NCBI RefSeq assembly: GCF_014640335.1
Contig: NZ_BMGT01000005.1
Coordinates: forward strand, 7,398-71,397
Origin: Edaphobacter dinghuensis
Lineage (GTDB): Bacteria; Acidobacteriota; Terriglobia; Terriglobales; Acidobacteriaceae
Direction of reading: 5' to 3'
DNA length: 64,000 bases
Shown one piece after another: positions 1 to 18,542 of this stretch. The notes beneath the pieces are model-generated. The model was given only the letters and a program-made list of their open reading frames with translations, was not told the origin of the DNA and ran no database searches. The position numbers and the translations under genes are program-made. Position 1 is the first letter of the stretch. Each line of letters begins with the position of its first letter.

Positions 1-202
1 GTGCATCTGGAAGCCATGCCGCTGACGCCAAACGGGAAACTCGACCGCAAGGCGCTGCCTGCTCCCGAGGGTGATGCCTACGCCACTCGTGCCTACGAAC
101 CGCCACAGGGAGAGATTGAGAGCGCACTGGCCCAGATATGGCAGGAGCTTCTGCACGTCGACCGCGTCGGACGCAATGACAACTTCTTCGAGCTCGGCGG
201 CC
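1..202 (+). repeat. Intragenic repeat: A-domain tail plus PCP, copy 1
   Basis: This stretch aligns without gaps of note to 3259-3460 in the same gene, 3258 bp downstream. Both copies run from the A10 region to the PCP FELGG motif. It marks the module period (1086 codons) and shows the modules arose by duplication. Confidence 0.85.
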
Positions 203-3200
203 ACTCGCTACTGGCGGTTCAGGTAGTTCAGTACGTGCGTCAACTCGGATTCGACCTCGAAATCCGCGCCCTGTTCGCTACGCCGAAACTGGCCGACCTT
301 GCCGCATCTCTTCACCAGACTCTCGGTTTGTCCATCCTGCCGAACCTGATACAACCCAATTCCGAGATCATCACACCCGAGATGCTGCCACTAATCGATC
401 TGACGCAGCAGGAGATCGATCGCATCGTACAGCAGGTCCCGGGAGGCACCGCCAACGTCCAGGATATCTATGCGCTATCGCCATTGCAGGAAGGCATTCT
501 CTTCCACCACCTCATGGCCCATGCCGGCGATCCGTACCTGAGCCGCACCTTCTTATCGTTTGCCAGCCGAGCCTTGCTCGATCGCTTCCTGTTTGCGGTT
601 CAACAGATAGTCGATCGTCATGACATCCTCCGCACTTCATTTATCTGGGAAGGGCTCTCTATCCCGGCGCAGGTGGTGTGGCGGCAGGCCAAGATACCTG
701 TTGTCGAACTGGAACTCGATCCAGCCGCCGGGCCGATTGCAGATCAGCTTGCAAGTCATTTCGACCCAAGACAGGATCGCATTGATCTCGCGACGGCTCC
801 GCTCCTGCGCTTCGTTGTCGCCCATGATCCCGCACAAGACCGCTGGCTGATGATGCAGCTGCTGCACCATCTTGTTGGAGACCAGTCCACGCTGCACATG
901 CTGCGCCAGGAAGTCGCTGCGTTTCTCGCCGGGGGAGCGCAATCTCTATCCCCCTCCGTGCCGTTCCGTAATCTGGTGGCGCAGGCGCGGCTAGGCGTGA
1001 CGGTGGAAGAGCACGAGCGCTTCTTCCGGCAGATGCTCGGGGATATCACCGAACCCACATTAGCCTTCGGCATCACGGATGTTTATCAGGATGGCAGCAG
1101 CAGCACGGCAACGCGGCGAATGCTTCCACAGATGCTGAATGACCGCTTACGCAGGCAGGCTCGGCGGCTCGGTGTGAGCCTCACGACTTTGTGCCACCTC
1201 GCCTGGGGTCAGGTGCTTGCGTGCATCACCGATTGTGACAGCGTCGTTTGGGGAACCGTCCTTTTGGGCAGAATGCAGACGGGAGCTGCCGATGCGGTGG
1301 GCCTATTCATCAATACACTACCGATCCGTCTCGATCTCGATAACATCGCGACGGAAACTGCAGTTCGACAAGTGCAGTCCCGTTTGTCCGAGTTACTCAT
1401 GCATGAGCATGCTTCGCTGGTTCTGGCCCAACGCTGTAGCCGTGTCGAGGCACCGTTGCCTCTTTTCAACACTGTTTTCAATTACCGCCATAGTTCTCCG
1501 CCGCTGGACTCTACATCTACGAATGCCCTCGAGCAACAACGCCTGTTATCAGGTATCGAAGTGCTTGGGGGCGAGATCCGTAATAACTATCCGATCAGCC
1601 TCTCCGTAGATGATTTTGGGAGTTCTCTGGGCCTAGATGTGCTGGTCACGCAATCGCTGTTTCCGGAACGTATCTGCGATTACATGCAGCAGGCCCTCGA
1701 AAGCCTGGCAGATGCTTTGGAGACAGATCCCAAAACGCCCGTTCGCAAGCTCGAGGTTGTTCCTCTCGCTGAGCGGAAGCTTTTGCTGGAGACATGGAAC
1801 GCGACCGAAGCTCCGTACCCGGAGAATCTGTGCATCCACCAGCTGTTCGAAGAACAGGTACGCAAGAACCCTGAGGCGTCAGCGCTGATCTTCAATGATG
1901 GATCTCTCACCTATGCGGAATTGAACCGTCAGGCTAACCGTCTCGCTCACTATCTGATCGGGCTGGGCGTCCTGCCGGACGACCGTGTGGCCATCTGCGT
2001 GGACCGCGCCCCGGCCATGATCGTCGGCCTGCTCGCCATTCTTAAGGCCGGCGGAGCCTACGTGCCGCTCGATCCTGCCTATCCTTCCGAGCGCCTTACC
2101 CAGGTGCTGAACGATGCTGCGCCTCGGGTATTGCTCTGCGACGCGCGCGGTCATGAAGTTCTCGAAAGCCACACCGTAGATGGATTCACTGTACGCGGTC
2201 TCGACGATCCCTCCGCATGGTCTGATCTGTCGGCTGAAGATCCGCAGGTGCAGGAGCTCACCTCACAACATCTTGCCTACGTGATCTATACCTCGGGCTC
2301 CACCGGCACGCCAAAAGGCGTCATGATCGAGCATAGAAACCTGCTCAATTACTTCACTTGGGCGAGCAACGCCTATTATGGCCGAAATCGCGGAGGCTCA
2401 CCTGTAACCTTGTCGTTCGCTTTTGATGCAAGCATCACAGTTCTCTTCGGACCGCTGCTTGTCGGAGAGCCGGTTACGATGCTCGAAGCGCAAACCGAGC
2501 TCATAGCCCTGGAGCAGGCGGTATCGCCGTACGACGTCATTAAGCTGACTCCCGGTCACCTGAAGATCTTCAGTCAGTCGCTTGCGGCATCGGATGTGCC
2601 TGCTCCCTGCCGCTGCCTGGTGCTCGGCGGCGAAGCACTGAGCGCCAGCGATGTCCATTTCTGGCTTCAAAGATATCCAGATGTCGAGTTGATTAACGAG
2701 TACGGACCGACGGAAGCAACGATAGGCTGCCTAAGTTATGTTGTTAACTCGCCCTCGAAAAGATCAGTCATACCGATCGGTCGCCCGATCATCAACACGC
2801 GGATCTATCTTCTGGACAGTCACGGGCAGCCTGTGCCTCTCGGCGCAGTAGGAGAGATGTACATCGGCGGCGCGGGGGTAGCGCGTGGTTATCTGAGCCG
2901 ACCGGAGCTGACGGAAGAGCGCTTTCTGCCCGATCTGTTCTGTGGTGAGCCGGGAGCGCGCATGTACCGCACCGGGGACCTCGCGCGTTATCTGCCGGAC
3001 GGCAACCTGGAGTTCCTGGGGCGGAACGACCAGCAGGTGAAGATCCGCGGCTTCCGCATCGAGCTGGGTGAGATCGAAGCACGTCTTGCGGAGCATCCGC
3101 TGGTTGAACACCCCGTCGTCATCGCAAGAGAAGATGTTTCCGGGGACAAGCGGCTGGTCGCTTATTACACCACATCCTCTTCGCAAGACATAACAGCCGA

Positions 3201-4425
3201 GCAGTTGCGCACGCACCTGGCAACGCTGTTGCCGGAGTATATGGTGCCATCTGCGTTCGTGCATCTGGAAGCCCTGCCGCTGACGCCAAACGGAAAGCTG
3301 GATCGCAAGGCGTTGCCGGTTCCGGAGGGCGATGCCTACGGTGTCCAAACCTATGAGCCGCCTCAGGGAGAGACAGAAATCGCCCTGGCAGAAATCTGGC
3401 GGGAGTTGCTGCATATCGACCGCGTCGGACGCAACGACAACTTCTTCGAACTCGGCGGAAACTCACTGCTCGCTATTCAACTACTGGTTCGTTTAAAACA
3501 GCATTTCAAGGTATCTATTAGTCTTCCAGATCTGTACGATCACCTCCATTTGGCTCAACTATCTATACTCCTGCCAATAACGCAAGCGGCCGCGGTGCAC
3601 CATTCACACCTCATCTCGATTCGACCAAACGGCACGGCTATTCCTTTATTTCTTGTTCATGCCGGCGGAGGAGGTATCGACTACGCCAGACGGTTGGCAC
3701 CTTTTATCTCCTCGGTTATACCGTTATATGCGCTTGAGGCAAGCGGACTATTGCCTGGAGAAGAACCACTTACTAACGTTGAAGAAATGGCACAGACGTA
3801 TATAAAGTGGATCCGCACGGTGCAGGCCCGCGGACCATACAGAATTGCTGGCTGGTCGGCTGGTGGAGTCATCTGCTACGAGATGGCAAGACAATTTCTT
3901 TCGCAAGGGGACACAATAGCCTTTCTAGGAATGGTCGATACGTACTGCCCTACGACGCTGATTCATTCTGGAGTTCACTTCGAAGAAAAAAGCGCTCTCC
4001 TAGAAAGCCTCTCGACCCTGCTAGACCACAACAACATGACCGCTGTATGCGAGGCAGCAAAACGTCTAACCTTCGATGACCTCATCGATTATCTCCATAA
4101 GATGCGCTTATTAACAAAGGAACTAGTCAACCTACCCAACCTCGACGCCGCAACTGTGCGGTCGGTTTTGTATACACGCCACACCATCAACGCTGCTATA
4201 ACGAAATATGCAGTCAGCCCTATAACCTTGCCCATTTACCTCTTTGAGGCAATAGAAACAAACGCTCCTTGCTCAACAGGCTGGGCTGCGATTCTGAAGA
4301 AACAATTGCAGGTTATTCCTGTCCGAGGAACCCATATAAGTATGATGGAGAATCCTGAGTATGCGCGCTATCTAGGATCCCATCTCACAAGCCTTCTCGA
4401 GTCAACTTGCGTCGAATCAAATTAA
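1..4425 (+). CDS. Nonribosomal peptide synthetase, 3' part (A-end, PCP, dual E/C, A, PCP, TE)
   Basis: The frame is open to the window edge, so the true start lies upstream and the GTG at 1 is only the first in-frame codon. Visible order: the end of an A domain (LTPNGKLDRKALP), PCP1 (FELGGHSL, Ser69), a condensation domain from about 155 to 590, an A domain from about 610 to 1100 (YTSGSTGTPKG at 763, YGPTE at 901), PCP2 (FELGGNSL, Ser1155), and a terminal thioesterase (GWSAGG, Ser1286; Asp1313; His1445). The condensation domain has both its normal HHLVGD motif (289-294) and the N-terminal HHLMAHAGD (169-177), which fits the HH[I/L]x4GD signature of dual epimerisation/condensation domains. The upstream residue is therefore probably converted to D. 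The specificity residues of the complete A domain read D-A-T-K-V-G-E-I-G, which I recall as Asn/Asp-like. This is the chain-terminating subunit; the TE would release or cyclise the peptide. Confidence 0.95.
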   Translation: MHLEAMPLTPNGKLDRKALPAPEGDAYATRAYEPPQGEIESALAQIWQELLHVDRVGRNDNFFELGGHSLLAVQVVQYVRQLGFDLEIRALFATPKLADLAASLHQTLGLSILPNLIQPNSEIITPEMLPLIDLTQQEIDRIVQQVPGGTANVQDIYALSPLQEGILFHHLMAHAGDPYLSRTFLSFASRALLDRFLFAVQQIVDRHDILRTSFIWEGLSIPAQVVWRQAKIPVVELELDPAAGPIADQLASHFDPRQDRIDLATAPLLRFVVAHDPAQDRWLMMQLLHHLVGDQSTLHMLRQEVAAFLAGGAQSLSPSVPFRNLVAQARLGVTVEEHERFFRQMLGDITEPTLAFGITDVYQDGSSSTATRRMLPQMLNDRLRRQARRLGVSLTTLCHLAWGQVLACITDCDSVVWGTVLLGRMQTGAADAVGLFINTLPIRLDLDNIATETAVRQVQSRLSELLMHEHASLVLAQRCSRVEAPLPLFNTVFNYRHSSPPLDSTSTNALEQQRLLSGIEVLGGEIRNNYPISLSVDDFGSSLGLDVLVTQSLFPERICDYMQQALESLADALETDPKTPVRKLEVVPLAERKLLLETWNATEAPYPENLCIHQLFEEQVRKNPEASALIFNDGSLTYAELNRQANRLAHYLIGLGVLPDDRVAICVDRAPAMIVGLLAILKAGGAYVPLDPAYPSERLTQVLNDAAPRVLLCDARGHEVLESHTVDGFTVRGLDDPSAWSDLSAEDPQVQELTSQHLAYVIYTSGSTGTPKGVMIEHRNLLNYFTWASNAYYGRNRGGSPVTLSFAFDASITVLFGPLLVGEPVTMLEAQTELIALEQAVSPYDVIKLTPGHLKIFSQSLAASDVPAPCRCLVLGGEALSASDVHFWLQRYPDVELINEYGPTEATIGCLSYVVNSPSKRSVIPIGRPIINTRIYLLDSHGQPVPLGAVGEMYIGGAGVARGYLSRPELTEERFLPDLFCGEPGARMYRTGDLARYLPDGNLEFLGRNDQQVKIRGFRIELGEIEARLAEHPLVEHPVVIAREDVSGDKRLVAYYTTSSSQDITAEQLRTHLATLLPEYMVPSAFVHLEALPLTPNGKLDRKALPVPEGDAYGVQTYEPPQGETEIALAEIWRELLHIDRVGRNDNFFELGGNSLLAIQLLVRLKQHFKVSISLPDLYDHLHLAQLSILLPITQAAAVHHSHLISIRPNGTAIPLFLVHAGGGGIDYARRLAPFISSVIPLYALEASGLLPGEEPLTNVEEMAQTYIKWIRTVQARGPYRIAGWSAGGVICYEMARQFLSQGDTIAFLGMVDTYCPTTLIHSGVHFEEKSALLESLSTLLDHNNMTAVCEAAKRLTFDDLIDYLHKMRLLTKELVNLPNLDAATVRSVLYTRHTINAAITKYAVSPITLPIYLFEAIETNAPCSTGWAAILKKQLQVIPVRGTHISMMENPEYARYLGSHLTSLLESTCVESN
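3259..3460 (+). repeat. Intragenic repeat: A-domain tail plus PCP, copy 2
   Basis: This is the second copy of the segment at 1-202, beginning with the same GTGCATCTGGAAGCC. The similarity stops at the PCP phosphopantetheine motif, where base composition also changes sharply. Confidence 0.85.
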
Positions 4426-4539
4426 ACGAGCTTTTTGCCTGCTCCGATAAGATACTCATTGCAAATCGGCCTGGCCAAGATAGCAGTTGTGACCGCTTTA
4501 AAGTATTTCCTTGAATCGTAGCTCGCGACGAGCCTCATC

Positions 4540-5397
4540 ATGCGCTACCCTACGTTGAGAAACTTAACATTTCATCCGCTAATGCCTCTACATGCGACGC
4601 ATGCACAGAATCACCCTATCGTTTGCATACCTGGGGCAGGAGCAAGCGTAACTACCTTTATCGCATTTGCCGGAGCTCTGGGAGATAGTCACCCGATCTT
4701 CGGTCTACAGCCGCGCGGCCTCGATCTAGTTCATCTACCCCACGCAAGCGTTGTAGAGACCGCGCACTTCAACGTTGCAGCCGTCGCAACCTTACATTCC
4801 GTTCGGCCCATCCACCTCATAGGGCATTCATATGGGGGACTCGTAGCATTCGAGATGGCACTTCAACTGGAGCAAAGCGGTGCACCCGTCGAATCCCTCA
4901 CCCTTATCGATAGTGATCCTCCCGATGAACGGCCCAATCACTCGAACCTGCCAACGACTTCAGAGCTCTTCCAAGCATTCACGGAAGTATTTGAGGACAA
5001 CTACGAGATTGAACTGGCCCTAAATAACGATCTGATGGCTTCGGGCGATCAAATCAATTTCCTCCTAAGCCTCCATAGGACCTTGCTTTCAAGACGATGC
5101 CTTCCAGCGCATAGCACTATTGATATGATCAGGGGGTCGTTCCTGCACTTCGCATCTGCTCTCACGAATCGATACATACCACAGGATATCCGCAGGTCGG
5201 CTACCCATCTTGCATATGTCCGATCCAAACGGCTCAACGAGATGGACAATTACGAACGACTAATCGTTAATACAAAACAATGGCGATTGTTTTCGCCAAA
5301 TCTTACTATTTGGTCGGGTCCGGGCGATCACTTTTCAATCCTTCGTCCTCCTCACGTCTCGTCTCTAGCCCAATGGTGGAGAGCAGCACACTCGTAA
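4540..5397 (+). CDS. Free-standing thioesterase (alpha/beta hydrolase, PF00975-like)
   Basis: A 285-residue alpha/beta hydrolase of the NRPS/PKS thioesterase type. The N-terminal IVCIPGAGASVTTF forms the oxyanion strand-loop, GHSYGG carries the nucleophilic Ser, LIDSDPP supplies the likely Asp and GPGDHFSIL the His. Such proteins either clear misprimed carrier domains (type II TE) or act as a second release enzyme. It lies 114 bp after the NRPS that already has its own TE domain, and its sequence is closer to the TE-domain type than to classical short type II TEs. The ribosome site is weak; Met15 at 4582 is an alternative start. No signal peptide is seen, so it should be cytosolic. Confidence 0.85.
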   Translation: MRYPTLRNLTFHPLMPLHATHAQNHPIVCIPGAGASVTTFIAFAGALGDSHPIFGLQPRGLDLVHLPHASVVETAHFNVAAVATLHSVRPIHLIGHSYGGLVAFEMALQLEQSGAPVESLTLIDSDPPDERPNHSNLPTTSELFQAFTEVFEDNYEIELALNNDLMASGDQINFLLSLHRTLLSRRCLPAHSTIDMIRGSFLHFASALTNRYIPQDIRRSATHLAYVRSKRLNEMDNYERLIVNTKQWRLFSPNLTIWSGPGDHFSILRPPHVSSLAQWWRAAHS

Positions 5398-5591
5398 ATG
5401 CCTCCGTTTAACGCTCCCTCCGAGCTGATGGTGAACCAAATCTAATTCGCGTATTGACTGAAAACCCAGACGTGCGCGTGGCGGGCGGCAGTGGTCCGTA
5501 TTCCACATTTCCCTACTGTTGCTTGACACCAACCATTACCGATGTATTTCACCCGAAACTCTAGATCGTTCTCAATAGGGAAGAGCTATTC

Positions 5592-7217
5592 ATGGATTTG
5601 ATCAACTTTCTGTTAAAGCATTCGCGACGAGAGCTGCTCCTCAGTATCTTTGCGGGGATCATAAGCGGCGCCTGCAATGCTGGATTGATTGCAACAATAA
5701 ATGCAGCAATAAGGCACGGAGCCATAGACACACATCGCTCCCTCATATTTATTGCTCTGTGTATTCTGTTGCCTCTCTCGCGCCATTTGTCTGAAAGGGT
5801 ACTAAACCGAATCGGCCAGCATTCGATGTATACGTTACGCATGGGGCTATGTCGTCAAATATTGGCGGCTCCATTACGCGTTATTGAGCAGCTTGGGCCG
5901 GCTCGCTTGCTCGCAATTCTCACGGAAGATATTCCAACCATTACCGGAACTGTTTTTATGCTACCTACGGTATGCATTAACGTTGCAATGATGATTGCGT
6001 GCCTAATCTATCTTGGCCTTCTTTCGGCATCTCTCTTAATAGCCTTGCTTGCGTTCCTTTTGATTGGTGTCTTGGTTTATCAATTGCTTGTGTCAAAGGC
6101 GCGTCGCCTATTCACGCTTGCCCGCGAGGACGCAAACCACCTGCACGATAATTTTCGGGGGCTCTTGTATGGAATCAAGGAACTCAAGCTGCACGAGTCC
6201 CGCAGGTTTGAGTTTATCGATCGCGTGTTGCAGTCTACAGCTAGTTCCATAGAATCTAATAACATCGCCGGCCAGAATATCTACAGCATCGCTACCAGCG
6301 GCGGCCAGATGTTGTTGTTTGGATTTATTGGCGTCATAATATTTGGGGCACCTCGCTTCCATTATCTCCCTCCCGTGACCCTCACCGGATATGCGTTTAC
6401 GCTACTTTATCTAATGTCACCGTTGCAGGGGATCATGAATATCTCACCTACTGTCACACGAGCCAATATAGCGCTTAGGACCGTCACCGACCTTGGCCTT
6501 TCTCTAGTGAAGTATGACTGCTGCGAAACAAAAGTAGTTGGTAATTCCACCTCGTGGCAGTCTCTAACACTTCAGTCTGTCGTTCATACTTACTTCCAGG
6601 AGAAGGATAGTAGGCCATTTACTTTAGGGCCACTCGACATATCTTTTAAGCCCGGCGAGATCGTGTTCATCATAGGCGGTAATGGAACAGGGAAAACCAC
6701 ATTCGCCAAACTGATAACAGGACTGTATACACCCGAAGAGGGCACAATTTTTCTCGATGAAGATGCTATAGATAATGAGGAAGCGAGGAGTAGATATCGT
6801 CAATACTTCAGCGCGATATTTGGCGACTTTTTTCTTTTTGAGGAATTGATCGGGATTACAAATGATGACGAACTGAACCGCGTTGCCAATGATTATCTTG
6901 ACAAACTGCATCTTGCGAATAGCGTGAGTATTCATAACCGTACGCTGTCAACTCTCGATCTGTCGCAGGGGCAAAGAAAGCGTCTTGCATTGCTCACTGC
7001 GTTTCTTGAAGACCGGCCAATCTACTTATTTGACGAATGGGCTGCGGACCAGGATCCGTATTTCAAAGAAATATTTTATAGAGAGTTACTACCCGCACTC
7101 CGAGCCCGGGGTAAGACTGTCTTTGTAATTAGTCACGATGATCGGTACTACTCGATAGCCGATCGTGTAATAAAGCTGGAAAATGGATCAATTATTCAGG
7201 ATGCAACTGCAGCATAG
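5592..7217 (+). CDS. Cyclic peptide export ABC transporter (SyrD/PvdE family), TM-ATPase fusion
   Basis: A 541-residue half-transporter with fused membrane and ATPase domains. Six hydrophobic segments lie in about residues 1-290, followed by the ATPase with Walker A GGNGTGKTT (362-370), signature LSQGQ (457-461), Walker B YLFDEW (Asp481, Glu482) and H-loop His515. The phrase DEWAADQDP after Walker B is characteristic of the SyrD/PvdE group, which moves nonribosomal peptides or peptide siderophores from the cytoplasm to the periplasm. It would act as a homodimer in the inner membrane. GGAAG-like sequence (AGGGAAGAG) precedes the ATG. Its place straight after the NRPS and thioesterase marks it as the cluster's exporter. 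Confidence 0.93.
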   Translation: MDLINFLLKHSRRELLLSIFAGIISGACNAGLIATINAAIRHGAIDTHRSLIFIALCILLPLSRHLSERVLNRIGQHSMYTLRMGLCRQILAAPLRVIEQLGPARLLAILTEDIPTITGTVFMLPTVCINVAMMIACLIYLGLLSASLLIALLAFLLIGVLVYQLLVSKARRLFTLAREDANHLHDNFRGLLYGIKELKLHESRRFEFIDRVLQSTASSIESNNIAGQNIYSIATSGGQMLLFGFIGVIIFGAPRFHYLPPVTLTGYAFTLLYLMSPLQGIMNISPTVTRANIALRTVTDLGLSLVKYDCCETKVVGNSTSWQSLTLQSVVHTYFQEKDSRPFTLGPLDISFKPGEIVFIIGGNGTGKTTFAKLITGLYTPEEGTIFLDEDAIDNEEARSRYRQYFSAIFGDFFLFEELIGITNDDELNRVANDYLDKLHLANSVSIHNRTLSTLDLSQGQRKRLALLTAFLEDRPIYLFDEWAADQDPYFKEIFYRELLPALRARGKTVFVISHDDRYYSIADRVIKLENGSIIQDATAA

Positions 7218-7419
7218 CGATTGCGCACCGCCATATCGCTGCCTTCTCGCTCTCGTGGAAAGGCCTTGCACCTGTGATTTTGAGAAATATCAAACAACTT
7301 GCGCCGCGGTGGTCTACCGTTGTGCGGAGCCGTTGCGATGCGACCGAATAGCGATCTCGCGTTCGCATTAAAAGTCCAGCGTTGGCTATCTTCCTGTATG
7401 TCGCTACCGGAGAAACTCC

Positions 7420-8370
7420 ATGATTCAATGGCACGTAACAACAAGCACTCTTCCACTCGAAGCGCATGCAGAACGGCCAGGCTCTTCAGTCGGAGAACTG
7501 CGCGATTGGCTGCTTTCGAATCCATCGGAACTCGACTCCAGACTAATGAGTTCCGGTGCAGTTCTCTTTCGAAACTTTGCCGTCACTACACCCGAGGAAT
7601 TTCAGGAGATCGCGGCAGTCGTTTGCGGTAAGTTCGCCGACTATGTAGGAGGAAATTCACCGCGGACCCGTGTAGCTAGCCACGTCTTTACTTCGACTGA
7701 GTACCCGAGAACTGCTGTTATTTCGATGCATAACGAAGCATCTTATCTGCCACATATGCCGCGACGAATTCTCTTTTACTGTGCAAAACCCGCAGCAACC
7801 GGAGGCCAAACACCGCTTGCGGATTGTCGGCGCATTTTGACCCGAATATCTCCTGCTGTGACCGAGCGCTTTGTCAAGCATGGGGTCATCTATGTAAATA
7901 ATTTACATGGAGGCAGGGGATTTGGACGGTCATGGATAGATGTTTTCGATACTCGGGACAAACATGAGGTACAAAAGCGACTTAAGGCAGATGGATATGA
8001 TTACGAATGGACCAAGAACGGTGGGCTCCGAACGATGATGCGCGCACCCTCCGTCATAGTTCACCCTGAAACCGGTGCAAGAGTATGGATCAATCAAGCC
8101 GAGCAATGGCATCCCTCAAGTCTCGATCCTGCCATACGCGAGCAACTTCTATCGATTTTACCCGTAGATGAACTGCCTCACTACGCCGTACTTGGAAACG
8201 GGTCAGAGATCGAAGAGCAGGACCTTGAAGACATTAGAAGGGCTATGCTAGCGGAGGAACGAATATTTCAATGGCGTAGTGGGGATATCCTCCTTTGCGA
8301 CAACTTCTTGGTGATGCACGGGCGTCAGGCTTACACGGGTGATCGAAGAGTTCTAGTCTCCATGGGATGA
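7420..8370 (+). CDS. TauD/SyrP-like Fe(II)/2-oxoglutarate dioxygenase, copy 1
   Basis: A 316-residue member of the TauD/TfdA superfamily (SyrP/AsnO-like). Metal ligands are visible as His104-x-Glu106 (SMHNEASY) and a distal His300 (VMHGR); the following Arg is a candidate 2-oxoglutarate anchor. The H-x-E form is known in clavaminate synthase-like and AsnO-type enzymes, while classic TauD has H-x-D. SyrP-type enzymes hydroxylate the beta carbon of aspartate on an NRPS carrier, and AsnO hydroxylates free Asn. This one likely makes a beta-hydroxy amino acid for the peptide. GGAG precedes the ATG. It ends at MG followed by two stops, about 9 residues shorter than the paralogue at 10657, so a small C-terminal truncation is possible. 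Confidence 0.88.
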   Translation: MIQWHVTTSTLPLEAHAERPGSSVGELRDWLLSNPSELDSRLMSSGAVLFRNFAVTTPEEFQEIAAVVCGKFADYVGGNSPRTRVASHVFTSTEYPRTAVISMHNEASYLPHMPRRILFYCAKPAATGGQTPLADCRRILTRISPAVTERFVKHGVIYVNNLHGGRGFGRSWIDVFDTRDKHEVQKRLKADGYDYEWTKNGGLRTMMRAPSVIVHPETGARVWINQAEQWHPSSLDPAIREQLLSILPVDELPHYAVLGNGSEIEEQDLEDIRRAMLAEERIFQWRSGDILLCDNFLVMHGRQAYTGDRRVLVSMG

Positions 8371-8730
8371 TGAGGACCATGGTTTCCATGTGCCCGCGCA
8401 ACAGATGTGATCGATCGCGCTTGACTCTCAATCGCCAAGCTGGAATTCCAGACAGCTTATGAGTTGCTCGGCGTTCCGCAACTACCCATTCACAATGTTC
8501 AACAGACCCAAGCTGTAGCTTGCATCGGAATCATTCAGGCAAGATACTCGGCAGGCTTGTAGCACAAAGTGGGCCAACGCGGTTCGGAGCCAGGCACCGC
8601 TCACTACCAAGCACAACATCATTACTTGGCACGACCACGTAGCTGTCAAGACACGGAGCATAGCGTGTTCGTGGACAACCAACTATTGCATCTAGACTCA
8701 GCGTTGCAAAACACTGCGGAGGTACACCTC
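8371..8730. other. Intergenic stretch, nothing recognised
   Basis: 360 bp between the first dioxygenase and the chosen glycosyltransferase start. The glycosyltransferase frame stays open back to a GTG at 8569, but the translation there resembles no glycosyltransferase N-terminus. I see no convincing promoter, hairpin or small gene. Confidence 0.5.
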
Positions 8731-10377
8731 GTGAAATCTATCTATCTCGACATAGTGCCACAGGACGCGGAAAGCCGGAAGGAAACGGATCCTACGGGCT
8801 ACACAATTCTGGGGTATAACGTCTTCTCATCTGAATTTTTCAGGGCGGTGCTAAGACATTCTCGCTACGATCGGATATTTGTTCCGTCTAGCCCGAAGCC
8901 TTCGGGAGGCGACATGCGAGACTCCGCGGTTTACGAGAATAATCGTGGACGCATAGACGTGGTCACTGAACAGCAGATTGCGAACATGAAGGTAGCCGGC
9001 GATTGTGGCCCATCGGTATTTATGACGCGAGGAACGGATCTGGCTGCGATGGCAAGGCTACGCCGTATTGGCGGTTGCTCGCGGGCGCCTATCGTCGGTG
9101 CGATACATTCGATCAATTACTCATGGCAGCTAAGAGCGGTTATGATGCTGCTCGTAGCGCGGTTAAATAGCTTTGATGCTCTCGTGTGTTCGAGTTCCGC
9201 TGGGCATACGGCCATGCTCCGGTTTATTGATCTTCTGACAAAGAGACTGAAAATATGTGATTTGCCCGCTCTGCCTGCGGAGTTTAAGATGCCGATTATT
9301 CCGCTAGGGGTCGATACTGACCGATTTGAGAAGTTTGGGCAAGGTGAGATTCGCAAACAACTCTCGTTGTCATCCGGGCCGATACTTTTGTATTTTGGAA
9401 GGTTCTCTCCCACGAGCAAGGCTGACCTCCTACCTCTTATTGCAGCATTCCAGCAGGTAGTCCGCAAGACTCCGGATGCGACCTTGTTGCTTGCGGGCGA
9501 TGATACTCACCACCATATGAGCGGCCAACTCCAAAAGCTAGCTACTTTCCTAGATATCACTGACAACGTACGCGTGATTGCGAATCCGGATCTAAGCATG
9601 AAGCGTCGTCTCTTTGGCGAAGCAGACATCTTTGTCTCGCCTAGTGACAGCTTGCAGGAGACCTTTGGGATTACACTGATCGAAGCGATGGCAGCAGGTC
9701 TGCCCTGCGTGGTCTCAGACTGGAACGGGTACAAGGATATCGTGAGTGATGGCGAGACAGGCTTCCTCATTCCCACGACTATTCCGATATATCCCTCAAG
9801 TTTTGATGACTTGCGCGGATCTGGAGCGATGGTAAATGTAGATCTCCTCGCTGCAACTACTATCGTAGACTGGCCAACGTTTATCAACCGAGTCTGTACC
9901 CTTCTCTCCGACGTAGATCTGCGCAAAAGAATGGGCATAGCCGCACGGAACAAAGCTAAGTTGCGATATGACTGGTCTGTTGTTATCAAGGACCATGAAG
10001 CGCTGTGGGACGAACTCATCGATGAAGCGGCGCGCCGCAATGGGGTGAATGAAAATAAAACTCTCGACCTAGACAGCTTTGGGTATCGAGAAATCTTCTC
10101 TCACTACTCAACGGACGAGCTTTCAGATGATCGGGTTGTTTCTACAACGAGTGTGACAGGCTCTCCTGAACTGCCCTTTAGCATGTTAAGAGACACCCTT
10201 CCGTGGTTTCAGGAAGATGTGTTCCTTGCAATTGACGCAATCATTAAGAAGACAGGCACGACAACAATAGGAGAAATCCTTCGTGATCTTGGCAAAGGCG
10301 GCGAACTGGAGGAAATCTCTCACATCGCACACCTGAGCCGAATGATCAAATACGGTTTACTCAAGTTCGGCGATTAA
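8731..10377 (+). CDS. Glycosyltransferase, GT4/GT-B type
   Basis: I place the start at GTG 8731 because GGAGG lies 9 bp upstream and the protein then opens with a beta strand (MKSIYLDIVPQ); a longer frame from 8569 adds 54 unconvincing residues. The 548-residue product has a GT-B fold signature: PIIPLGVDTDRF, then LLYFGRFSPTSKADLL at the start of the nucleotide-sugar domain, then ETFGITLIEAMAAGLP with the E-x7-E retaining motif. A C-terminal tail of about 120 residues after the GT core is unusual and unassigned. It probably transfers a sugar to the peptide or its lipid tail, since it sits between the two hydroxylase genes whose products create hydroxyl acceptors. Acceptor and sugar cannot be read from sequence. 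Confidence 0.88.
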   Translation: MKSIYLDIVPQDAESRKETDPTGYTILGYNVFSSEFFRAVLRHSRYDRIFVPSSPKPSGGDMRDSAVYENNRGRIDVVTEQQIANMKVAGDCGPSVFMTRGTDLAAMARLRRIGGCSRAPIVGAIHSINYSWQLRAVMMLLVARLNSFDALVCSSSAGHTAMLRFIDLLTKRLKICDLPALPAEFKMPIIPLGVDTDRFEKFGQGEIRKQLSLSSGPILLYFGRFSPTSKADLLPLIAAFQQVVRKTPDATLLLAGDDTHHHMSGQLQKLATFLDITDNVRVIANPDLSMKRRLFGEADIFVSPSDSLQETFGITLIEAMAAGLPCVVSDWNGYKDIVSDGETGFLIPTTIPIYPSSFDDLRGSGAMVNVDLLAATTIVDWPTFINRVCTLLSDVDLRKRMGIAARNKAKLRYDWSVVIKDHEALWDELIDEAARRNGVNENKTLDLDSFGYREIFSHYSTDELSDDRVVSTTSVTGSPELPFSMLRDTLPWFQEDVFLAIDAIIKKTGTTTIGEILRDLGKGGELEEISHIAHLSRMIKYGLLKFGD

Positions 10378-10656
10378 ACAGCCTGTAAGTCTGCCCTGCA
10401 CGCTTGTGATCTTGGGTTGATGTGAGTGTTGATTGCGCATAACCTGGAGCGGCTCCGACTGCTTTTCAGTATGAAGAAGGACAGAATCAGCTAGGAATCA
10501 CCAGCATAGTATCTCTACAGTCAGTCCCCGGCAGCCGGTCGCGGTCATTTTGAGAGTTATCTGACATTCATCAGAATTCGGAATCGTGGCCGTTCTCCTT
10601 CCAGCAACCTTCAGCTTAAAAAGCGTATCACCTATGCCAACAATGGAGAGATGATC

Positions 10657-11589
10657 ATGATACCTTTCGTCATCGCATCTAGTTCGCAGGAGACCCTGTC
10701 ACAACAGATTGCTAGCAATCGACAGACGATTGACAACACGATAAGGGAACTCGGTGCCGTACTTCTTCGGGGCTTTAATATATCAACGGAGCCCCAATTC
10801 CAAGAGATCGTCACGCTTTTGTGTGGCCAGCCGCTTAATTACATGTACCGATCAACGCCGAGGACAGATTTAGGTCACGGTATCTACACAGCAACGGAGT
10901 ACCCTGCTGGTTTATCAATACCGCTCCACAATGAGAACGCATACCAGAGGGACTGGCCTCTGCTAATTATGTTTTGCTGCATAGAGCCTGCGGCCGATAA
11001 GGCAGGACAAACGCCAATCGCCGACACCATTCGCGTGACGAACAGAATACCCAAGATGATACAGGATGTCTTTCGCGAGAAGGAGATTATGTATATCAGG
11101 AACTATCATCAGAGCGTTGATTTACCCTGGCAGGTCGTATTCCAAACCCAGTCACGCGATATGGTTGATAAGTATTGCGAAGAACATGAAATCGAAACCG
11201 TGTGGTTTCCGGATGGAGCATTGCAAACGCGACAAATCTGCCAAGCGTTTGCTAACCACCCAGTATCTGAATCGTGTATTTGGTTTAATCAAGCACACCT
11301 CTTTCATCCTTCCGCACTGGACGGCCGGACGCGGGCAGCTCTTGGTGAAATGTTCACCGAGGATCGTTTTCCAAGAAACGCTACTTTTGGGGATGGTTCT
11401 CGAATAGATGAAGAAATGCTCGCCGAAATAAGAACTGCATTTGAAGCAGAGAAAGTTTTGTTCGAATGGCGAAAGGGTGATGTCTTAGTTCTAGATAACA
11501 TGCGCGTTTCGCATGGGAGAACACCATTTAAAGGCAAAAGGCGAATCCTCACGGCTATGGGTCGGCCCTATTCAGCATACATCAAATAA
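10657..11589 (+). CDS. TauD/SyrP-like Fe(II)/2-oxoglutarate dioxygenase, copy 2
   Basis: A 310-residue paralogue of the enzyme at 7420, clearly diverged but sharing the same segments throughout. Ligands are His91-x-Glu93 (LHNENAY) and His286 (VSHGRTPF). I prefer ATG 10657 to ATG 10651 because GGAGAG at 10645-10650 abuts the first ATG and is well spaced from the second. Two such enzymes in one cluster suggest two hydroxylated positions, or one enzyme for Asp and one for another residue. It follows the first glycosyltransferase. Carrier-bound versus free substrate cannot be told from sequence. The C-terminus RPYSAYIK is complete, unlike copy 1. Confidence 0.88.
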   Translation: MIPFVIASSSQETLSQQIASNRQTIDNTIRELGAVLLRGFNISTEPQFQEIVTLLCGQPLNYMYRSTPRTDLGHGIYTATEYPAGLSIPLHNENAYQRDWPLLIMFCCIEPAADKAGQTPIADTIRVTNRIPKMIQDVFREKEIMYIRNYHQSVDLPWQVVFQTQSRDMVDKYCEEHEIETVWFPDGALQTRQICQAFANHPVSESCIWFNQAHLFHPSALDGRTRAALGEMFTEDRFPRNATFGDGSRIDEEMLAEIRTAFEAEKVLFEWRKGDVLVLDNMRVSHGRTPFKGKRRILTAMGRPYSAYIK

Positions 11590-12196
11590 GATATATCCAA
11601 GCCGTGTCGTCAGGTACGATGTTAAGTATGTATGTCAGAGCAAGACCAACGTGGTCTGTAGAATTCCTGTGATCTGCCCGATCCCAACTCTTCTTGTTCG
11701 TGGCGCCGTACTATGGCCCGCACCGCTTTGGAATCCATGTTTACGTTCTGGCCGCCCCGAGGGGCTATTAGCCCCTCGTCCAATTGCCGCAAAACTCGCG
11801 CTCGCCGCGCGCTCGCGCCGACTTACGGCCGCGGTTCAGCATTCTGCCAATCTGCTCCCGCTCCCCATTGCCCAGTGCACCTTGCCTCGATGCTACTTCG
11901 TCAGGAAGCCGTTCTTCGCCGATATCCCTCGCTCAGAAAGTCTTTGCGTAGGCACACGATTACGTGGCTAGACTACTAGCAGCTCTGGAATGGACTTCAT
12001 GAGGGCAAAGTACGTTGCGAGGAGGGACAATCCGCATAAGAGTATTTGTGAGTGACGGTAGTGCTGAATAGGTTCGTGCGTATTCGGCTAGTACACACCG
12101 CGATTGAAGATTAGCAACTCAGGAAGCATGCGACCAGGTGGGGCCGCGTAGGAAACCGGACTACATTACGTGGAATCAGTACCCAAAGGGAAGATT
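11590..12196. other. Long intergenic region with one hairpin
   Basis: About 600 bp without a convincing gene. Short + strand frames (for example 11713-11979) encode Arg/Ser-rich, low-complexity protein that I do not recognise, and they may be remnants. The one clear structure is the hairpin at 11758-11778. The change to a new gene block (methyltransferase and two glycosyltransferases) follows. Confidence 0.5.
11758..11778 (+). terminator. Perfect 9-bp hairpin downstream of dioxygenase 2
   Basis: CGAGGGGCT, loop ATT, AGCCCCTCG. It is GC-rich and tight, about 170 bp beyond the dioxygenase stop, but has no T-run after it. It may be a Rho-independent-like stop or an unrelated stem. Confidence 0.35.
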
Positions 12197-13009
12197 ATGC
12201 TAACAAGTAAACTCTGCGTAAAGAACGATTTTTCTGAGCCTTGGTTTATTCCTTGGCGCGAAAGCATGAAGCATGATGCCAACGGCATCCAACTTGGCGG
12301 ACGTTTTCTACATCGCAAAGAGTGGGAATTCGTTACAGTTTGCCAAGCTCTCGAAGAGAGAGGAATGTTGGGACCGGGCAAACGTGGTCTCGGTTTTGCT
12401 GTTGGCCTGGAGCCATTGCCATCAATATTCGCAAACAGGGGCTGCACGATAACCGCCACGGACCACGAGACCGACTCCGACGGCGCGTGGGACGGTCAAT
12501 GGGCGTCCGATCTTGGAGCTCTCAACAACCCCGATATCTGCGAACCCTCCATATTCCACAAAAATGTGACGCTACGACGTATTGATATGAATAATCTGCC
12601 CGCAGACCTTAACGGCTATGACTTCTCGTGGTCGTGTTGTGCACTCGAGCACTTGGGAAGTCTACAAAAAGGTCTTGAGTTTCTGCATTCCCAAATGCGG
12701 TGCTTGAGACCCGGCGGTGTTGCAGTCCACACGACAGAATATAATCTCTTGTCGAACGACGCCACGCTCACCGAAGGACCAACGGTAGTTTATCGACAGA
12801 GAGACCTAAGCGAATTGCAGTACCGCCTTGAGAAGCAAGGTCACAGCCTCGAGCCTATGAACATGGATATAGGAAATAGCATGGAGGATTGGTTTATAGC
12901 GCATCAACCATGGGAAGACACAACGAAAAATCTCTCTCATCTCCGCTTATTGATTGGCCGTAACATCTGCACGTCTGTACTATTAATTGCGACCAAAAGT
13001 CGCGCCTGA
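12197..13009 (+). CDS. SAM-dependent methyltransferase, class I (divergent)
   Basis: About 270 residues. The Rossmann core shows a degenerate motif I (GLGFAVGLEPLPSIFA, followed by the acidic end of strand 2 in TATDHE). Its motif IV-like stretch is YDFSWSCCALEHLGSL, and the post-motif is MRCLRPGGVAVHTTEYN. This layout is that of small-molecule O- or N-methyltransferases found in polysaccharide and secondary-metabolite loci. I choose ATG 12197, with AAGGGAAG just upstream; an in-frame GTG at 12170 would add 9 residues. Placed among glycosyltransferases, it may methylate a sugar or the peptide. The acceptor is unknown. Confidence 0.75.
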   Translation: MLTSKLCVKNDFSEPWFIPWRESMKHDANGIQLGGRFLHRKEWEFVTVCQALEERGMLGPGKRGLGFAVGLEPLPSIFANRGCTITATDHETDSDGAWDGQWASDLGALNNPDICEPSIFHKNVTLRRIDMNNLPADLNGYDFSWSCCALEHLGSLQKGLEFLHSQMRCLRPGGVAVHTTEYNLLSNDATLTEGPTVVYRQRDLSELQYRLEKQGHSLEPMNMDIGNSMEDWFIAHQPWEDTTKNLSHLRLLIGRNICTSVLLIATKSRA

Positions 13010-13480
13010 CCTACTCAATGCGTTCCTGAGAGAACTCTTTGCTTACTAGCCAGTCCTATCCCTCAGGATTCTGTGAGATAGCCTGCTCTTGTCCAGGATA
13101 CCTGGACGTGCTCACAATATTGCCAACCGATCACTAGCCAAGCGCGTGATAGTTTTTACACCACATCCCGCACATAAGTGACAACCGATCGGAGTGCTCA
13201 AGGACGCAAATAAAAAACATGCGGGGTGCAGATCGAACTCTCTGATAAAGAGCTCGTAAGTCTTGATGTAGCGGCAGCGAGCGCCAAGAGAGTGAATCTA
13301 CGAGATGCAGTCAGGCGTCGACAGTGACCAGTTGGGCGCTGAGAACATCTCGGTCCACGACAACTTACGTTTGCGCCGAAGTTTATCTCTCTGGGTTGCT
13401 TGCGAGAGTCATCAAGAAACTATTGTGCCTGGCTTTTCGCGGTTCTCTCATCACACTTGAATGTCTCAACGTATATCCAT
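13010..13480. other. Intergenic stretch, nothing recognised
   Basis: 470 bp between the methyltransferase and the second glycosyltransferase. The glycosyltransferase frame is open from 13400, but the extra residues do not look like protein of this family. No hairpin or promoter stands out. Confidence 0.45.
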
Positions 13481-14515
13481 ATGAAACGACGTACAATTGG
13501 TTACGCAAGCCAGAATTACGCAAGTCATAGCCGAGTCAGCGCCTTATACCAGTCAATTATCAGAGAGCGCTGGGACGTTGTGTCAGCGGTAAAAACAGCC
13601 GATGAGCTCGCATCGCTCGATCTCGTAATCTTGCATATAGAACCTCATGATTATGCTGCAATCTATAAGGAATATCCTGGATTAAGCCGGAAATATGTAA
13701 TTAGTTATTGCGTATGGGAAGCCGACAAGCTACCCGAGCCGTATCGAGCGTCACTTTCTCTAGTCCAGGAAGTGTGGACCCCTTCGGAATATTGCAAATC
13801 GGTCATTGAACAGTATCATGATCGCGTCTATTGCATTCCCCATTGCATAGAGCGAGACGGAGGTTATTCGCAAATCGAGTTCGATCGTGTAAGAGAGATT
13901 ATTCGCCCTCGTGACGACGATTTTTTCTTCTTGAATATGGGTGCCACCGGTGACAAGCGGAAGAATATCAAGGCTTTAATCAACTCATTCCGCAGCTGCG
14001 CGGATCAAATTCCGCAAGCCCGGCTAATACTGAAGGCTCCGCTGTCGGATTCGACCACTTCCGATCAACGCATCACAACGATTACCAACTTCCTATCAGA
14101 CGGAGAAGTGAATGCGCTATACGCGATATCTAACGTATACGTAAGCACTCATCATGGCGAAGGATGGGGACTAACTCTATCCGACGCAATGCTTCTCGGC
14201 ATACCTGCAATAGCTACCGGCTACTCGGGGAACCTTCACTACATGACAGAAGACAATGCATTTTTAATTCCTTCGGAGGAGAGGAATATCGAGACGGATG
14301 ATTGCTTCGGATTATTCTCGGGAAATATGAAGTGGGCATATCCACGTCTCGACGACATTGCATCAAATATGGTCTTTGTGGCGGAACACTATGACAATGA
14401 CATAGTGATTCAGAGAGCTCTCCAAGCAAAGCGCGACGTGCTGCGCTTCAATAGGCAGCAAATACGGGAGTTGATCCATGGTCGGCTAAGCGACTTGCTT
14501 GCAGAAAGACAATAA
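13481..14515 (+). CDS. Glycosyltransferase, GT4-like
   Basis: The start at ATG 13481 gives 344 residues beginning MKRRTIGYASQNYASHSRV, a natural N-terminus for this fold. A longer frame from 13400 adds 27 residues with no family likeness. Recognisable parts are VWTPSEYCKSVIEQ and VYCIPHCIE at the end of the first Rossmann domain, FFFLNMGATGDKRKNI at the start of the second, and HHGEGWGLTLSDAMLLGIP as the nucleotide-sugar motif, with Asp where most relatives have the second Glu. It probably adds one sugar to the exported peptide. The spacing of about 270 bp to the next glycosyltransferase suggests loosely packed, perhaps separately transferred genes. Confidence 0.82.
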   Translation: MKRRTIGYASQNYASHSRVSALYQSIIRERWDVVSAVKTADELASLDLVILHIEPHDYAAIYKEYPGLSRKYVISYCVWEADKLPEPYRASLSLVQEVWTPSEYCKSVIEQYHDRVYCIPHCIERDGGYSQIEFDRVREIIRPRDDDFFFLNMGATGDKRKNIKALINSFRSCADQIPQARLILKAPLSDSTTSDQRITTITNFLSDGEVNALYAISNVYVSTHHGEGWGLTLSDAMLLGIPAIATGYSGNLHYMTEDNAFLIPSEERNIETDDCFGLFSGNMKWAYPRLDDIASNMVFVAEHYDNDIVIQRALQAKRDVLRFNRQQIRELIHGRLSDLLAERQ

Positions 14516-14783: not shown

Positions 14784-15752
14784 ATGCGAGACCCAAGGAT
14801 ATTCTATTACGCGTTCGATAGTGGCTTACCGTCCGGAGGAGAGAAGGATACATACGAGCATGTTGACATTTTGAACCAGAGCGGAAGCGACGCATATGCT
14901 CTTCACCTGAAGGAGGGTTATCGGCACACATGGTTCAGAAATGAAACGCGCACCATTTGTTTCCGAGACATGTGGAACCTTCACGACAGACAGCGGGACT
15001 ATTTCGTGTTGCCAGAAGTTCTCGGACCAATGATCGAAAGTTTCCCTGGCCGTAAGGTTATTTTTAATAAAAACGTTTACTACGGGTTTCAGGCATTTCA
15101 GAGTGATGAGCAGCTATTCAAAACTTATTCAGATCCATCGGTAGCTGCGGTATTCGCTGTTTCCGAGCATAATAGATCTCACTTGGCCTTCACGTTTCCG
15201 GAAAGTCAAATCTTTAGAGTTGTTTATAGTATTGACTGTGAAGTGTTCAGTTACAATCCAATGCCGAATAAAAAGCCTATTATTGCTTGTGTCGCAAAAG
15301 ACCTCCCACAACTGGATATGCTTCGGAAAATCATCTCGGCTAGGAATTGTGCAGGACTTAACGATTTCGGAATGTACGAGTGGCTATTATTAAAGGGCTA
15401 TGATGAAGGACGGATGGCGAGCACATTACGTGACGCCGTCCTCGTCATTTCTCTATCCACAAAAGAGGGGCTCAGCAGAACGATTCGAGAGGCGATGGCG
15501 TGTGGTTGCCTCGTGCTAGTTCCTGCTGCAGGAGCCGCCATGGAAGATCTCCCACAGCATGCCCACGTGGAAGTGGAGAACTTGATGGACATGGTGACAA
15601 AAATCGAAGACATCATGCGGATGTTCCTGCATCAGCCCGATCAGTTGGCCGCACTTTCTTTAGAAAATTGCAGGTACGCAACCTCCTTCACATATCAGCG
15701 CTCACGCGAGCACATATTGCGGGCGTGGCAAGAGATTCTCCGTGAGGACTGA
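14784..15752 (+). CDS. Glycosyltransferase-like protein
   Basis: 322 residues, preceded by a strong GGGGGGAGAAAGG ribosome site 3-12 bp upstream of the ATG. The N-terminal half begins RIFYYAFDSGLPSGG. The C-terminal half carries LVISLSTKEGLSRTIREAMACGCLVLVP, which corresponds to the E-x-(n)-E nucleotide-sugar loop of GT-B enzymes, and it ends in a typical helix (RAWQEIL). The overall size is short for GT4, so it is a divergent member. It is the last gene of the peptide cluster on this strand; after it the minus-strand FTR1 fragment begins. Confidence 0.72.
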   Translation: MRDPRIFYYAFDSGLPSGGEKDTYEHVDILNQSGSDAYALHLKEGYRHTWFRNETRTICFRDMWNLHDRQRDYFVLPEVLGPMIESFPGRKVIFNKNVYYGFQAFQSDEQLFKTYSDPSVAAVFAVSEHNRSHLAFTFPESQIFRVVYSIDCEVFSYNPMPNKKPIIACVAKDLPQLDMLRKIISARNCAGLNDFGMYEWLLLKGYDEGRMASTLRDAVLVISLSTKEGLSRTIREAMACGCLVLVPAAGAAMEDLPQHAHVEVENLMDMVTKIEDIMRMFLHQPDQLAALSLENCRYATSFTYQRSREHILRAWQEILRED

Positions 15753-17214: not shown

Positions 17215-17509
17215 TTGGATGGGTGGAATACAAGGATTTTCCTATGGCAGTCAGGGCGAAAATCAGTTTTCTGCCATTGGCGGTAAAGGAATACGACCGG
17301 TGCCTGTGGCGATGCAATAACGGCGAACGTTGATTTTTCCGTACCAATGCATACGCAACTATGACCGAAACTCGCCTCTCATCCAATTCCGGTGTCACCA
17401 ATCTCATTTTCCGCCGATCTGCCTTTTTCTGCCATCTGGTGCGGAATCAACCACTTTGGATGAAATTTTGTGCGCTCACAAATACGACCGATTTAGTCTT
17501 ATATTGATT

Positions 17510-18508: not shown

Positions 18509-18542
18509 CGCACACGGTTTCGCATAAGCAGGGAGAAGGAAT

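What the first reader, a model, noticed from the sequence alone, without database searches (positions are those of the whole stretch)
1..11589. Asn/Asp-type terminal module with two H-x-E hydroxylases and an exporter
The last A domain reads D-A-T-K-V-G-E-I-G at the specificity positions, which I recall as close to Asn/Asp codes. Two TauD/SyrP-like enzymes in the same cluster have His-x-Glu iron ligands, a form known in AsnO and clavaminate-type enzymes. Together they predict one or two beta-hydroxy-Asx residues in the product. Beta-hydroxy-Asp is a known Fe(III) ligand in siderophores.
Basis: partly seen in the sequence, partly recalled or inferred. Interest (0 to 1): 0.75.

Follow-up and report, generated by a model that had tools for sequence, protein, structure and literature searches.

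The report
Acidobacterial peptide synthetase with asparagine hydroxylases
A soil-type acidobacterium carries a 12-step assembly line for an unknown fatty-acylated peptide, with two enzymes that most likely add a hydroxyl group to its asparagine residues; it looks more like an antibiotic-type peptide pathway than the iron-scavenging one first suggested.

Summary
The last A domain reads D-A-T-K-V-G-E-I-G; two intact TauD-fold enzymes with H-x-E ligands lie at 7420-8370 and 10651-11589; an exporter lies at 5592-7217. The window shows only the 3' end of a 12-module line (three complete genes plus one split by a contig break) in an acidobacterium-type genome. Three of its modules, not one, have Asx codes.

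The interpretation needs two corrections. (1) The code is Asn-type (E at position 322). In tistrellabactin a DATKIGEVG domain loads mainly Asn and is not hydroxylated, while OH-Asp comes from DLTKVGHVG. (2) H-x-E is no AsnO mark: it is invariant in 102 of 102 SyrP-type beta-hydroxylases examined. AsnO itself matches at E = 0.05 only.

In trees TauD2 groups with the AlbVIII-like albicidin locus and TauD1 with other NRPS-linked hydroxylases, both outside the cyanochelin/pyoverdine-type group (AU p = 0.084 and 0.042, so suggestive only). No TonB receptor lies near, and no FecCD permease exists in the genome.

Best reading: an uncharacterised, N-acylated peptide pathway in which SyrP/CysJ-type enzymes beta-hydroxylate carrier-bound Asn. 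The siderophore reading is not supported, though not excluded: an FTR1-like/SIP pair lies about 6 kb downstream. New member of a known kind.

The parts
1..4425 (+). 3' part of the last NRPS gene (g4, at least 3,939 aa, begins upstream of the window): T domain of module 11, then terminal module 12 C-A-T-TE
   Evidence: PF00668 aa 153-596, PF00501 aa 616-965, AMP-binding_C aa 1024-1099, PP-binding aa 1129-1188, Thioesterase aa 1215-1450
457..1788 (+). C domain of module 12, motif SPLQEGILFHHLMAHAGDPYL, dual condensation/epimerisation type (inferred from motif)
1846..3297 (+). A domain of module 12, code D-A-T-K-V-G-E-I-G (Asn-type); core 97% identical in DNA to the A core of module 9
3385..3564 (+). 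Carrier (T) domain of module 12 with LGGNSL motif, found only here and in module 9 among 12 modules
3643..4350 (+). C-terminal type I thioesterase (product release)
4540..5397 (+). Second, stand-alone thioesterase
   Evidence: PF00975 E 8.5e-22
5592..7217 (+). Cyclic-peptide-type ABC exporter (TIGR01194 subfamily)
   Evidence: 486.7 bits over cut-off 286.2
7420..8370 (+). TauD1: SyrP-type Fe(II)/2OG beta-hydroxylase, ligands H104-x-E106 and H300, Arg309/310
8569..10377 (+). GT4 glycosyltransferase with ~100-aa C-terminal extension, between the two hydroxylases
10651..11589 (+). TauD2: SyrP-type Fe(II)/2OG beta-hydroxylase, ligands H93-x-E95 and H288, R297
12170..13009 (+). Methyltransferase-like protein, probable cluster member (weak)
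   Evidence: PF08241 20.6 bits, just below cut-off 21.2
13400..14515 (+). GT4 glycosyltransferase, membership in the cluster uncertain
14784..15752 (+). GT4 glycosyltransferase-like, membership in the cluster uncertain

Best explanation
The locus is the downstream end of an uncharacterised NRPS gene cluster in an acidobacterium. A starter-C domain acylates the first residue. About 12 modules then build, by code, acyl-Thr-Gln-Ser-Glx?-X-Glx?-Thr-Ser-Asn-Asn-Ala-Asn, with several D residues set by dual C/E domains. The two SyrP/CysJ-type Fe(II)/2-oxoglutarate enzymes hydroxylate the beta-carbon of Asn while it is held on a carrier protein, most likely in modules 9 and 12, which share a near-identical A core and a unique GGNS carrier motif. 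The terminal TE releases (probably cyclises) the peptide and the TIGR01194 exporter secretes it. Shown by sequence: domains, codes, catalytic residues, family. Inferred: Asn as substrate, the target modules, acylation, cyclisation, and a non-siderophore (antibiotic-type) role.
For: A code DATKVGE[IV]G in three modules, matching published Asn codes. TauD1/TauD2 are NRPS-neighbour beta-hydroxylases: standalone relatives in 80 named genomes sit next to Asx modules more often than other modules do (32/59 first-downstream A domains vs 25/103 others, Fisher p = 1.6e-4; relatedness not corrected). TauD2 groups with the X. albilineans locus whose gene order (methyltransferase, CoA-ligase-like gene, SyrP-like gene) fits AlbVI-AlbVII-AlbVIII, and with a Rugamonas locus holding a pABA-like code and an Asn code. 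CysJ, homolog of AlbVIII, was shown to hydroxylate carrier-bound L-Asn (PMC7966384). A Janthinobacterium plasmid lipopeptide cluster with a FAAL has one relative of each hydroxylase and a DATKIGEVG module. Another acidobacterium has a hydroxylase beside three DLTK[VI]GEVG modules. First C domain is nearest to the 7c1k/7c1h entries (starter-C of RzmA from my own knowledge). Modules 9 and 12 duplicated with GGNS carriers. Exporter and two TEs fit peptide release and export.
Against: Tistrellabactin shows that DATK-type domains can take some Asp and need not be hydroxylated. AU test does not strictly reject TauD2 with the siderophore group (p = 0.084); TauD1 and TauD2 are long branches. The TauD2 group also holds Burkholderia loci beside a FAAL-PKS with no Asx module within 10 kb, so its substrates are mixed. 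Target modules are not experimentally linked. Chain order assumes that C4 and C5 join inside one gene.
Confidence: 0.65

Rival explanations
1. Siderophore cluster: the enzymes make beta-hydroxy-Asp (from promiscuous Asn/Asp domains) as Fe(III) ligands, and the nearby FTR1-like/SIP pair takes up or reduces the iron.
For: FTR1-like permease (17330-18508) and siderophore-interacting FAD protein (18543-19265) about 6 kb past TauD2; DATKIGEVG in tistrellabactin also loads Asp; the hydroxylases belong to the family that includes siderophore hydroxylases; AU p = 0.084 for TauD2.
Against: E322 Asn-type codes in all three Asx modules, while siderophore loci here carry H322 (DLTK[IV]GHVG). Both enzymes fall outside the siderophore group. 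No TonB receptor within 25 kb of the cluster, no FecCD permease in a 99.97% complete genome, no other chelator gene seen among the genes checked. The FTR1-like gene occurs without the hydroxylases in G027 and G009, in G027 paired with SIP. Even clade membership would not settle it, since non-metallophore lipopeptides such as turnercyclamycin are known false positives (PMC12971057).
Confidence: 0.15
2. One or both hydroxylases act on another residue, for example the Glx-like residues of modules 4 and 6 (kutzneride KtzO/KtzP-like) or the acyl chain, and not on Asn.
For: Two enzymes and two DM(K)DLGMVD Glx-like modules; TauD1 belongs to a different group from TauD2 and could have another substrate; 27 of 59 neighbouring A domains of relatives are not Asx.
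Against: Asx enrichment next to relatives; a relative of each type and a DATKIGEVG module co-occur in J. lividum, although that cluster also has one Glx code.
Confidence: 0.15
3. Stand-alone AsnO-type hydroxylation of free L-Asn before loading.
For: HxE ligands as in AsnO.
Against: HxE is invariant in all 102 SyrP-type homologs; AsnO (2og5/2og7) matches the family profile only at E = 0.048 over a short C-terminal stretch; nearest solved folds are At3g21360 and 9yut. The related CysJ does not act on free Asn (PMC7966384).
Confidence: 0.05

Closest known systems
CysJ (cystobactamid) / AlbVIII (albicidin), SyrP-type Asn beta-hydroxylases
   Same: Same TauD-fold family, stand-alone gene in an NRPS cluster; TauD2 groups with the AlbVIII-like locus L070 (98/90; SH-aLRT 92); Asn-coded module present.
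   Different: About 45% identity to TauD2; product scaffold unrelated (no pABA, no AMDH domain looked for); here two hydroxylases and three Asn modules.
SyrP and siderophore Asp beta-hydroxylases (TBH_Asp, IBH_Asp, CyanoBH_Asp)
   Same: Same superfamily, HxE ligands, NRPS neighbours.
   Different: Those siderophore loci pair with DLTK[VI]GHVG (Asp) modules and siderophore uptake genes; TauD1 and TauD2 fall outside that group and pair with Asn-type modules.
Janthinobacterium lividum EIF2 plasmid p356839 lipopeptide cluster (unnamed product)
   Same: One homolog grouping with TauD1 and one with TauD2, plus a DATKIGEVG module.
   Different: FAAL-initiated, more modules, SbnAB (Dap) genes and a different exporter; product unknown.
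Occidiofungin (ocf) cluster
   Same: Cyclic peptide transporter, glycosyltransferase, hydroxylase and two thioesterases, Asn / beta-OH-Asn residue (PMC9494966).
   Different: Hybrid PKS-NRPS with halogenase; residue set different; sequence homology of the clusters not tested.

Membership tests
SyrP/CysJ-type NRPS amino-acid beta-hydroxylases | TauD (PF02668) fold with complete Fe(II) facial triad and 2OG-binding Arg | tested here: met
   PF02668 E 3.5e-37 and 1.9e-41; H-x-E and distal H present, Arg after the distal His
SyrP/CysJ-type NRPS amino-acid beta-hydroxylases | Full-length homology to hydroxylases found beside NRPS modules | tested here: met
   42-53% identity to TauD2 over ~300 aa in 80 named loci, most beside NRPS A domains
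SyrP/CysJ-type NRPS amino-acid beta-hydroxylases | Acts on carrier-bound, not free, amino acid | not testable with these tools
   Needs purified proteins; shown for CysJ (PMC7966384)
AsnO / clavaminate-synthase-type oxygenases | Clear sequence homology to AsnO or CAS | tested here: not met
   Profile search of PDB: CAS1 E 9.7e-4 and AsnO E 0.048, both only over ~40 C-terminal residues
Siderophore Asp beta-hydroxylases (TBH/IBH/CyanoBH) | Placement with known siderophore hydroxylases in a tree | tested here: inconclusive
   Both placed outside the 75-row group holding cyanochelin, pyoverdine-like and Pandoraea loci, but AU p = 0.084 (TauD2) and 0.042 (TauD1). The published pHMMs were not available.
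NRP siderophore cluster | Asp-type (H322) A domain for the OH-Asp residue | tested here: not met
   All three Asx modules have E322; tistrellabactin precedent
NRP siderophore cluster | Ferric-siderophore uptake genes at the locus (TonB receptor, FecCD) | tested here: not met
   No PF00593 hit within 25 kb of the cluster; no PF01032 hit in the genome, 13 of 14 control genomes positive. An FTR1-like/SIP pair is present about 6 kb downstream.
NRP siderophore cluster | Iron-regulated production and Fe(III) binding | not testable with these tools
   Needs culture
Asn-activating A domain | Stachelhaus code D-[AL]-T-K-x-G-E-[VI]-G | tested here: met
   DATKVGEIG / DATKVGEVG / DATKVGEIG; published matches by PMC10391617 and PMC3547906
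TIGR01194 cyclic peptide exporters | Score above curated cut-off | tested here: met
   486.7 vs 286.2 bits

The most novel reading that the evidence does not exclude
The two hydroxylases each serve one of the two duplicated Asn modules (9 and 12), recognising the GGNS carrier motif, and the glycosyltransferase encoded between them sugars the new beta-hydroxyl, giving a glycosylated beta-hydroxyasparagine lipopeptide, a product type I know of from no acidobacterium.
Probability: 0.15. Interest if true: 0.6.

Novelty: new member of a known kind. Interest (0 to 1): 0.4.

Why it matters
A published survey found only 9 NRP-metallophore regions in 836 Acidobacteriota genomes (PMC12971057), and I know of few characterised NRPS products from this phylum. 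This cluster gives a testable residue-level prediction for one. It also shows why 'beta-hydroxylase beside an NRPS' is not enough to call a siderophore: the A-domain residue at position 322 and the hydroxylase clade point to beta-OH-Asn, which is typical of antibiotic lipopeptides and does not offer the iron-binding alpha-hydroxycarboxylate.

Tried and rejected
HxE as evidence for an AsnO-like enzyme: rejected, invariant in the whole family. FTR1-like/SIP pair as part of the cluster: rejected as proof, since the FTR1-like gene occurs in relatives without the hydroxylases and the pair recurs in one of them. Looking for the same cluster in relatives: TauD2 matches above the limit occur in only 4 of ~60 congeners, at 32-35% identity, three of them beside different NRPS genes with Asp, Ser or Gly codes, so no orthologous cluster was found. 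Standalone TauD next to DIWQSTADD-coded A domains in other families of the class: a separate clade, set aside. Clavaminate/GntD/TMLD NCBIfam hits: far below cut-offs. Reitz 2019 paper on interface domains is not held, so interface-domain typing could not be done. Laxaphycin route to OH-Asn: different enzyme (cupin_8; PMC7524897). g1 residues ~440-830 between the first C and first A domain: only sub-threshold Formyl_trans_C and half-C similarity; left unexplained.
Full report
WHAT IS THERE. The window is G000:C5:7398-71397 of a 4.54 Mb, 99.97% complete genome. The finding's ORF 1-4425 is only the end of a gene of at least 3,939 aa; an N at C5:7397 marks an assembly gap just before the window. 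Upstream, contig C4 holds three more NRPS genes that run towards the contig end, and a PPTase. Read in order, the codes are: g1 DFWNIGMVH (Thr), DAWQFGLID (Gln), DVWHISLID (Ser); g2 DM(K)DLGMVD (Glx-like), DLYDFSLVW (unassigned, Cys-like); g3 DM(K)DLGMVD, DFWNIGMVH (Thr), DVWHISLID (Ser); g4 DATKVGEIG, DATKVGEVG, DLFNNALTY (Ala), DATKVGEIG. Residue names other than Asn come from my own knowledge of published codes. The join of g3 to g4 across the contig break is inferred.

DOWNSTREAM GENES. After the terminal TE come, all on the + strand: a second TE, an exporter that passes TIGR01194, TauD1, a GT4 glycosyltransferase, TauD2, then a methyltransferase-like protein and two more GT4-like proteins. 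TauD1 and TauD2 are the only TauD-family genes in the genome. Both are full length; TauD1 ends with two stop codons after the conserved RRVLVSMG and lacks only a few variable C-terminal residues.

SPECIFICITY. Position 322 is E. In tistrellabactin biosynthesis DATKIGEVGK loads D-Asn (favoured) or D-Asp and that residue is not hydroxylated, whereas the l-erythro-OH-Asp comes from DLTKVGHVGK (PMC10391617). In the zeamine cluster DATKVGEVGK is predicted Asn (PMC3547906). In the siderophore-type loci fetched here the Asx module near the hydroxylase carries H322 (DLTK[IV]GHVG) in nearly all cases; E322 codes appear beside hydroxylases in Scytonema, Nostoc, Pyrinomonadaceae, Rugamonas, Janthinobacterium and another acidobacterium. 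So Asn is the better call, Asp a minor possibility.

THE TWO HYDROXYLASES. H-x-E and the distal His are invariant in 102 of 102 family members, so the motif does not point to AsnO. A profile of five members finds At3g21360 and 9yut strongly, clavaminate synthase and AsnO only weakly over ~40 residues. In the first tree TauD2 falls in a 10-row group (98/90) with X. albilineans, Rugamonas, Lysobacter, Burkholderia, Caulobacteraceae, Beijerinckiaceae and Blastocatellia AA13 sequences. The X. albilineans locus has a methyltransferase and a CoA-ligase-like gene just before the hydroxylase, the order I recall for albVI-albVII-albVIII; the Rugamonas locus has a pABA-like code and DLTKIGEVG. CysJ, homolog of AlbVIII, hydroxylates CysH-bound L-Asn and not free Asn (PMC7966384). 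In the second tree TauD2 keeps that company (SH-aLRT 92), TauD1 joins a 5-row group (98) with a Janthinobacterium, two Streptomyces and an acidobacterial sequence, and the cyanochelin producer's plasmid copy (Leptolyngbya NIES-3755; identification from my own knowledge), pyoverdine-like, Pandoraea and cyanobacterial sequences form a separate 75-row group (86). Forcing TauD2 or TauD1 into that group costs 22.5 or 38.1 log units, AU p 0.084 and 0.042: suggestive, not decisive, and both are long branches. The groups were named after seeing the tree.

AN INDEPENDENT PARALLEL. A J. lividum plasmid lipopeptide cluster (FAAL, NRPS) carries one hydroxylase that groups with TauD1 and one that groups with TauD2, and has a DATKIGEVG module. 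It also carries one Glx code, so it does not exclude Glx as a substrate. Across the 80 named loci the first A domain downstream of a stand-alone hydroxylase is Asx in 32 of 59 cases against 25 of 103 other modules (Fisher p = 1.6e-4); loci are related, so the p value is optimistic, and a few A-domain codes were misread by the motif search.

WHICH MODULES. Modules 9 and 12 share an A core 97% identical in DNA, and only these two have a carrier motif LGGNSL instead of LGGHSL. Two hydroxylases and two matching modules suggest these as targets, but the DATK modules of Scytonema and Nostoc beside hydroxylases have GGHS, so the motif is not a general mark. The first C domain is closest to PDB 7c1k/7c1h (161 bits; RzmA starter C, from my own knowledge) ahead of EntF, which suggests an N-acyl chain. 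C domains before modules 6, 7, 10 and 12 carry the HH[IL]xxxxGD-like motif of dual C/E domains and that before module 8 a degenerate form, predicting D residues at 5, 6, 7, 9 and 11 (motif meaning from my own knowledge).

SIDEROPHORE QUESTION. For: an FTR1-like permease and a SIP-family flavoprotein at 17330-19265. Against: the FTR1-like gene occurs without the hydroxylases in G027 and G009, and in G027 a copy is paired with SIP; no TonB receptor within 25 kb of the cluster; no FecCD permease in the genome while 13 of 14 control genomes have one; only two weak Lys/Orn-oxygenase-family hits, both on other contigs. The authors of the metallophore detector state that these hydroxylases are polyphyletic and that non-metallophore lipopeptides such as turnercyclamycin are caught as false positives (PMC12971057). 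The siderophore reading therefore stays a minority possibility.

VERDICT. Ordinary in kind, uncharacterised in detail: an acidobacterial NRPS cluster predicted to make an N-acylated dodecapeptide with one or more beta-hydroxy-Asn residues.

Noticed in passing
20653-43983: A tandem array of about eight MacB/FtsX (ADOP-type) permease genes with a PadR-like regulator at 40414-40749. MacB-like genes also sit beside the NRPS here (C4:29620-32277), beside the hydroxylase in L040, and beside the glycosyltransferase homolog in L159.
   Followed up: partly
17330-19265: FTR1-like permease (much below the EfeU/Ftr1 cut-offs of NCBIfam, above Pfam's) next to a SIP-family flavoprotein; a copy of the pair recurs in congener G027, which lacks the hydroxylases.
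   Followed up: partly
L011:6576-7958 (-), residues ~400-860 of the first NRPS protein: About 360 extra residues between the starter C domain and the first A domain, with sub-threshold similarity to Formyl_trans_C followed by what looks like the C-terminal half of a condensation domain.
   Followed up: partly
L009:51-350 and L009:9654-9953: A-domain cores of modules 9 and 12 are 97% identical in DNA, suggesting recent duplication or gene conversion inside the synthetase.
   Followed up: partly
L034-L039: In other families of the same class, stand-alone TauD enzymes follow a half-C/A/T protein with code DIWQSTADD; a separate, conserved pair of unknown product.
   Followed up: no
L057, L078, L090: Burkholderia lata/cepacia SyrP-type gene beside an aminotransferase, a FAAL-KS protein and a luciferase-like-monooxygenase PKS, without an Asx module within 10 kb; substrate unclear.
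   Followed up: no
8569-10377: GT4 glycosyltransferase found above E 1e-60 in only 2 other genomes of 396 in the phylum; one of these (G405) also has a TauD2-type hydroxylase, on another contig.
   Followed up: partly
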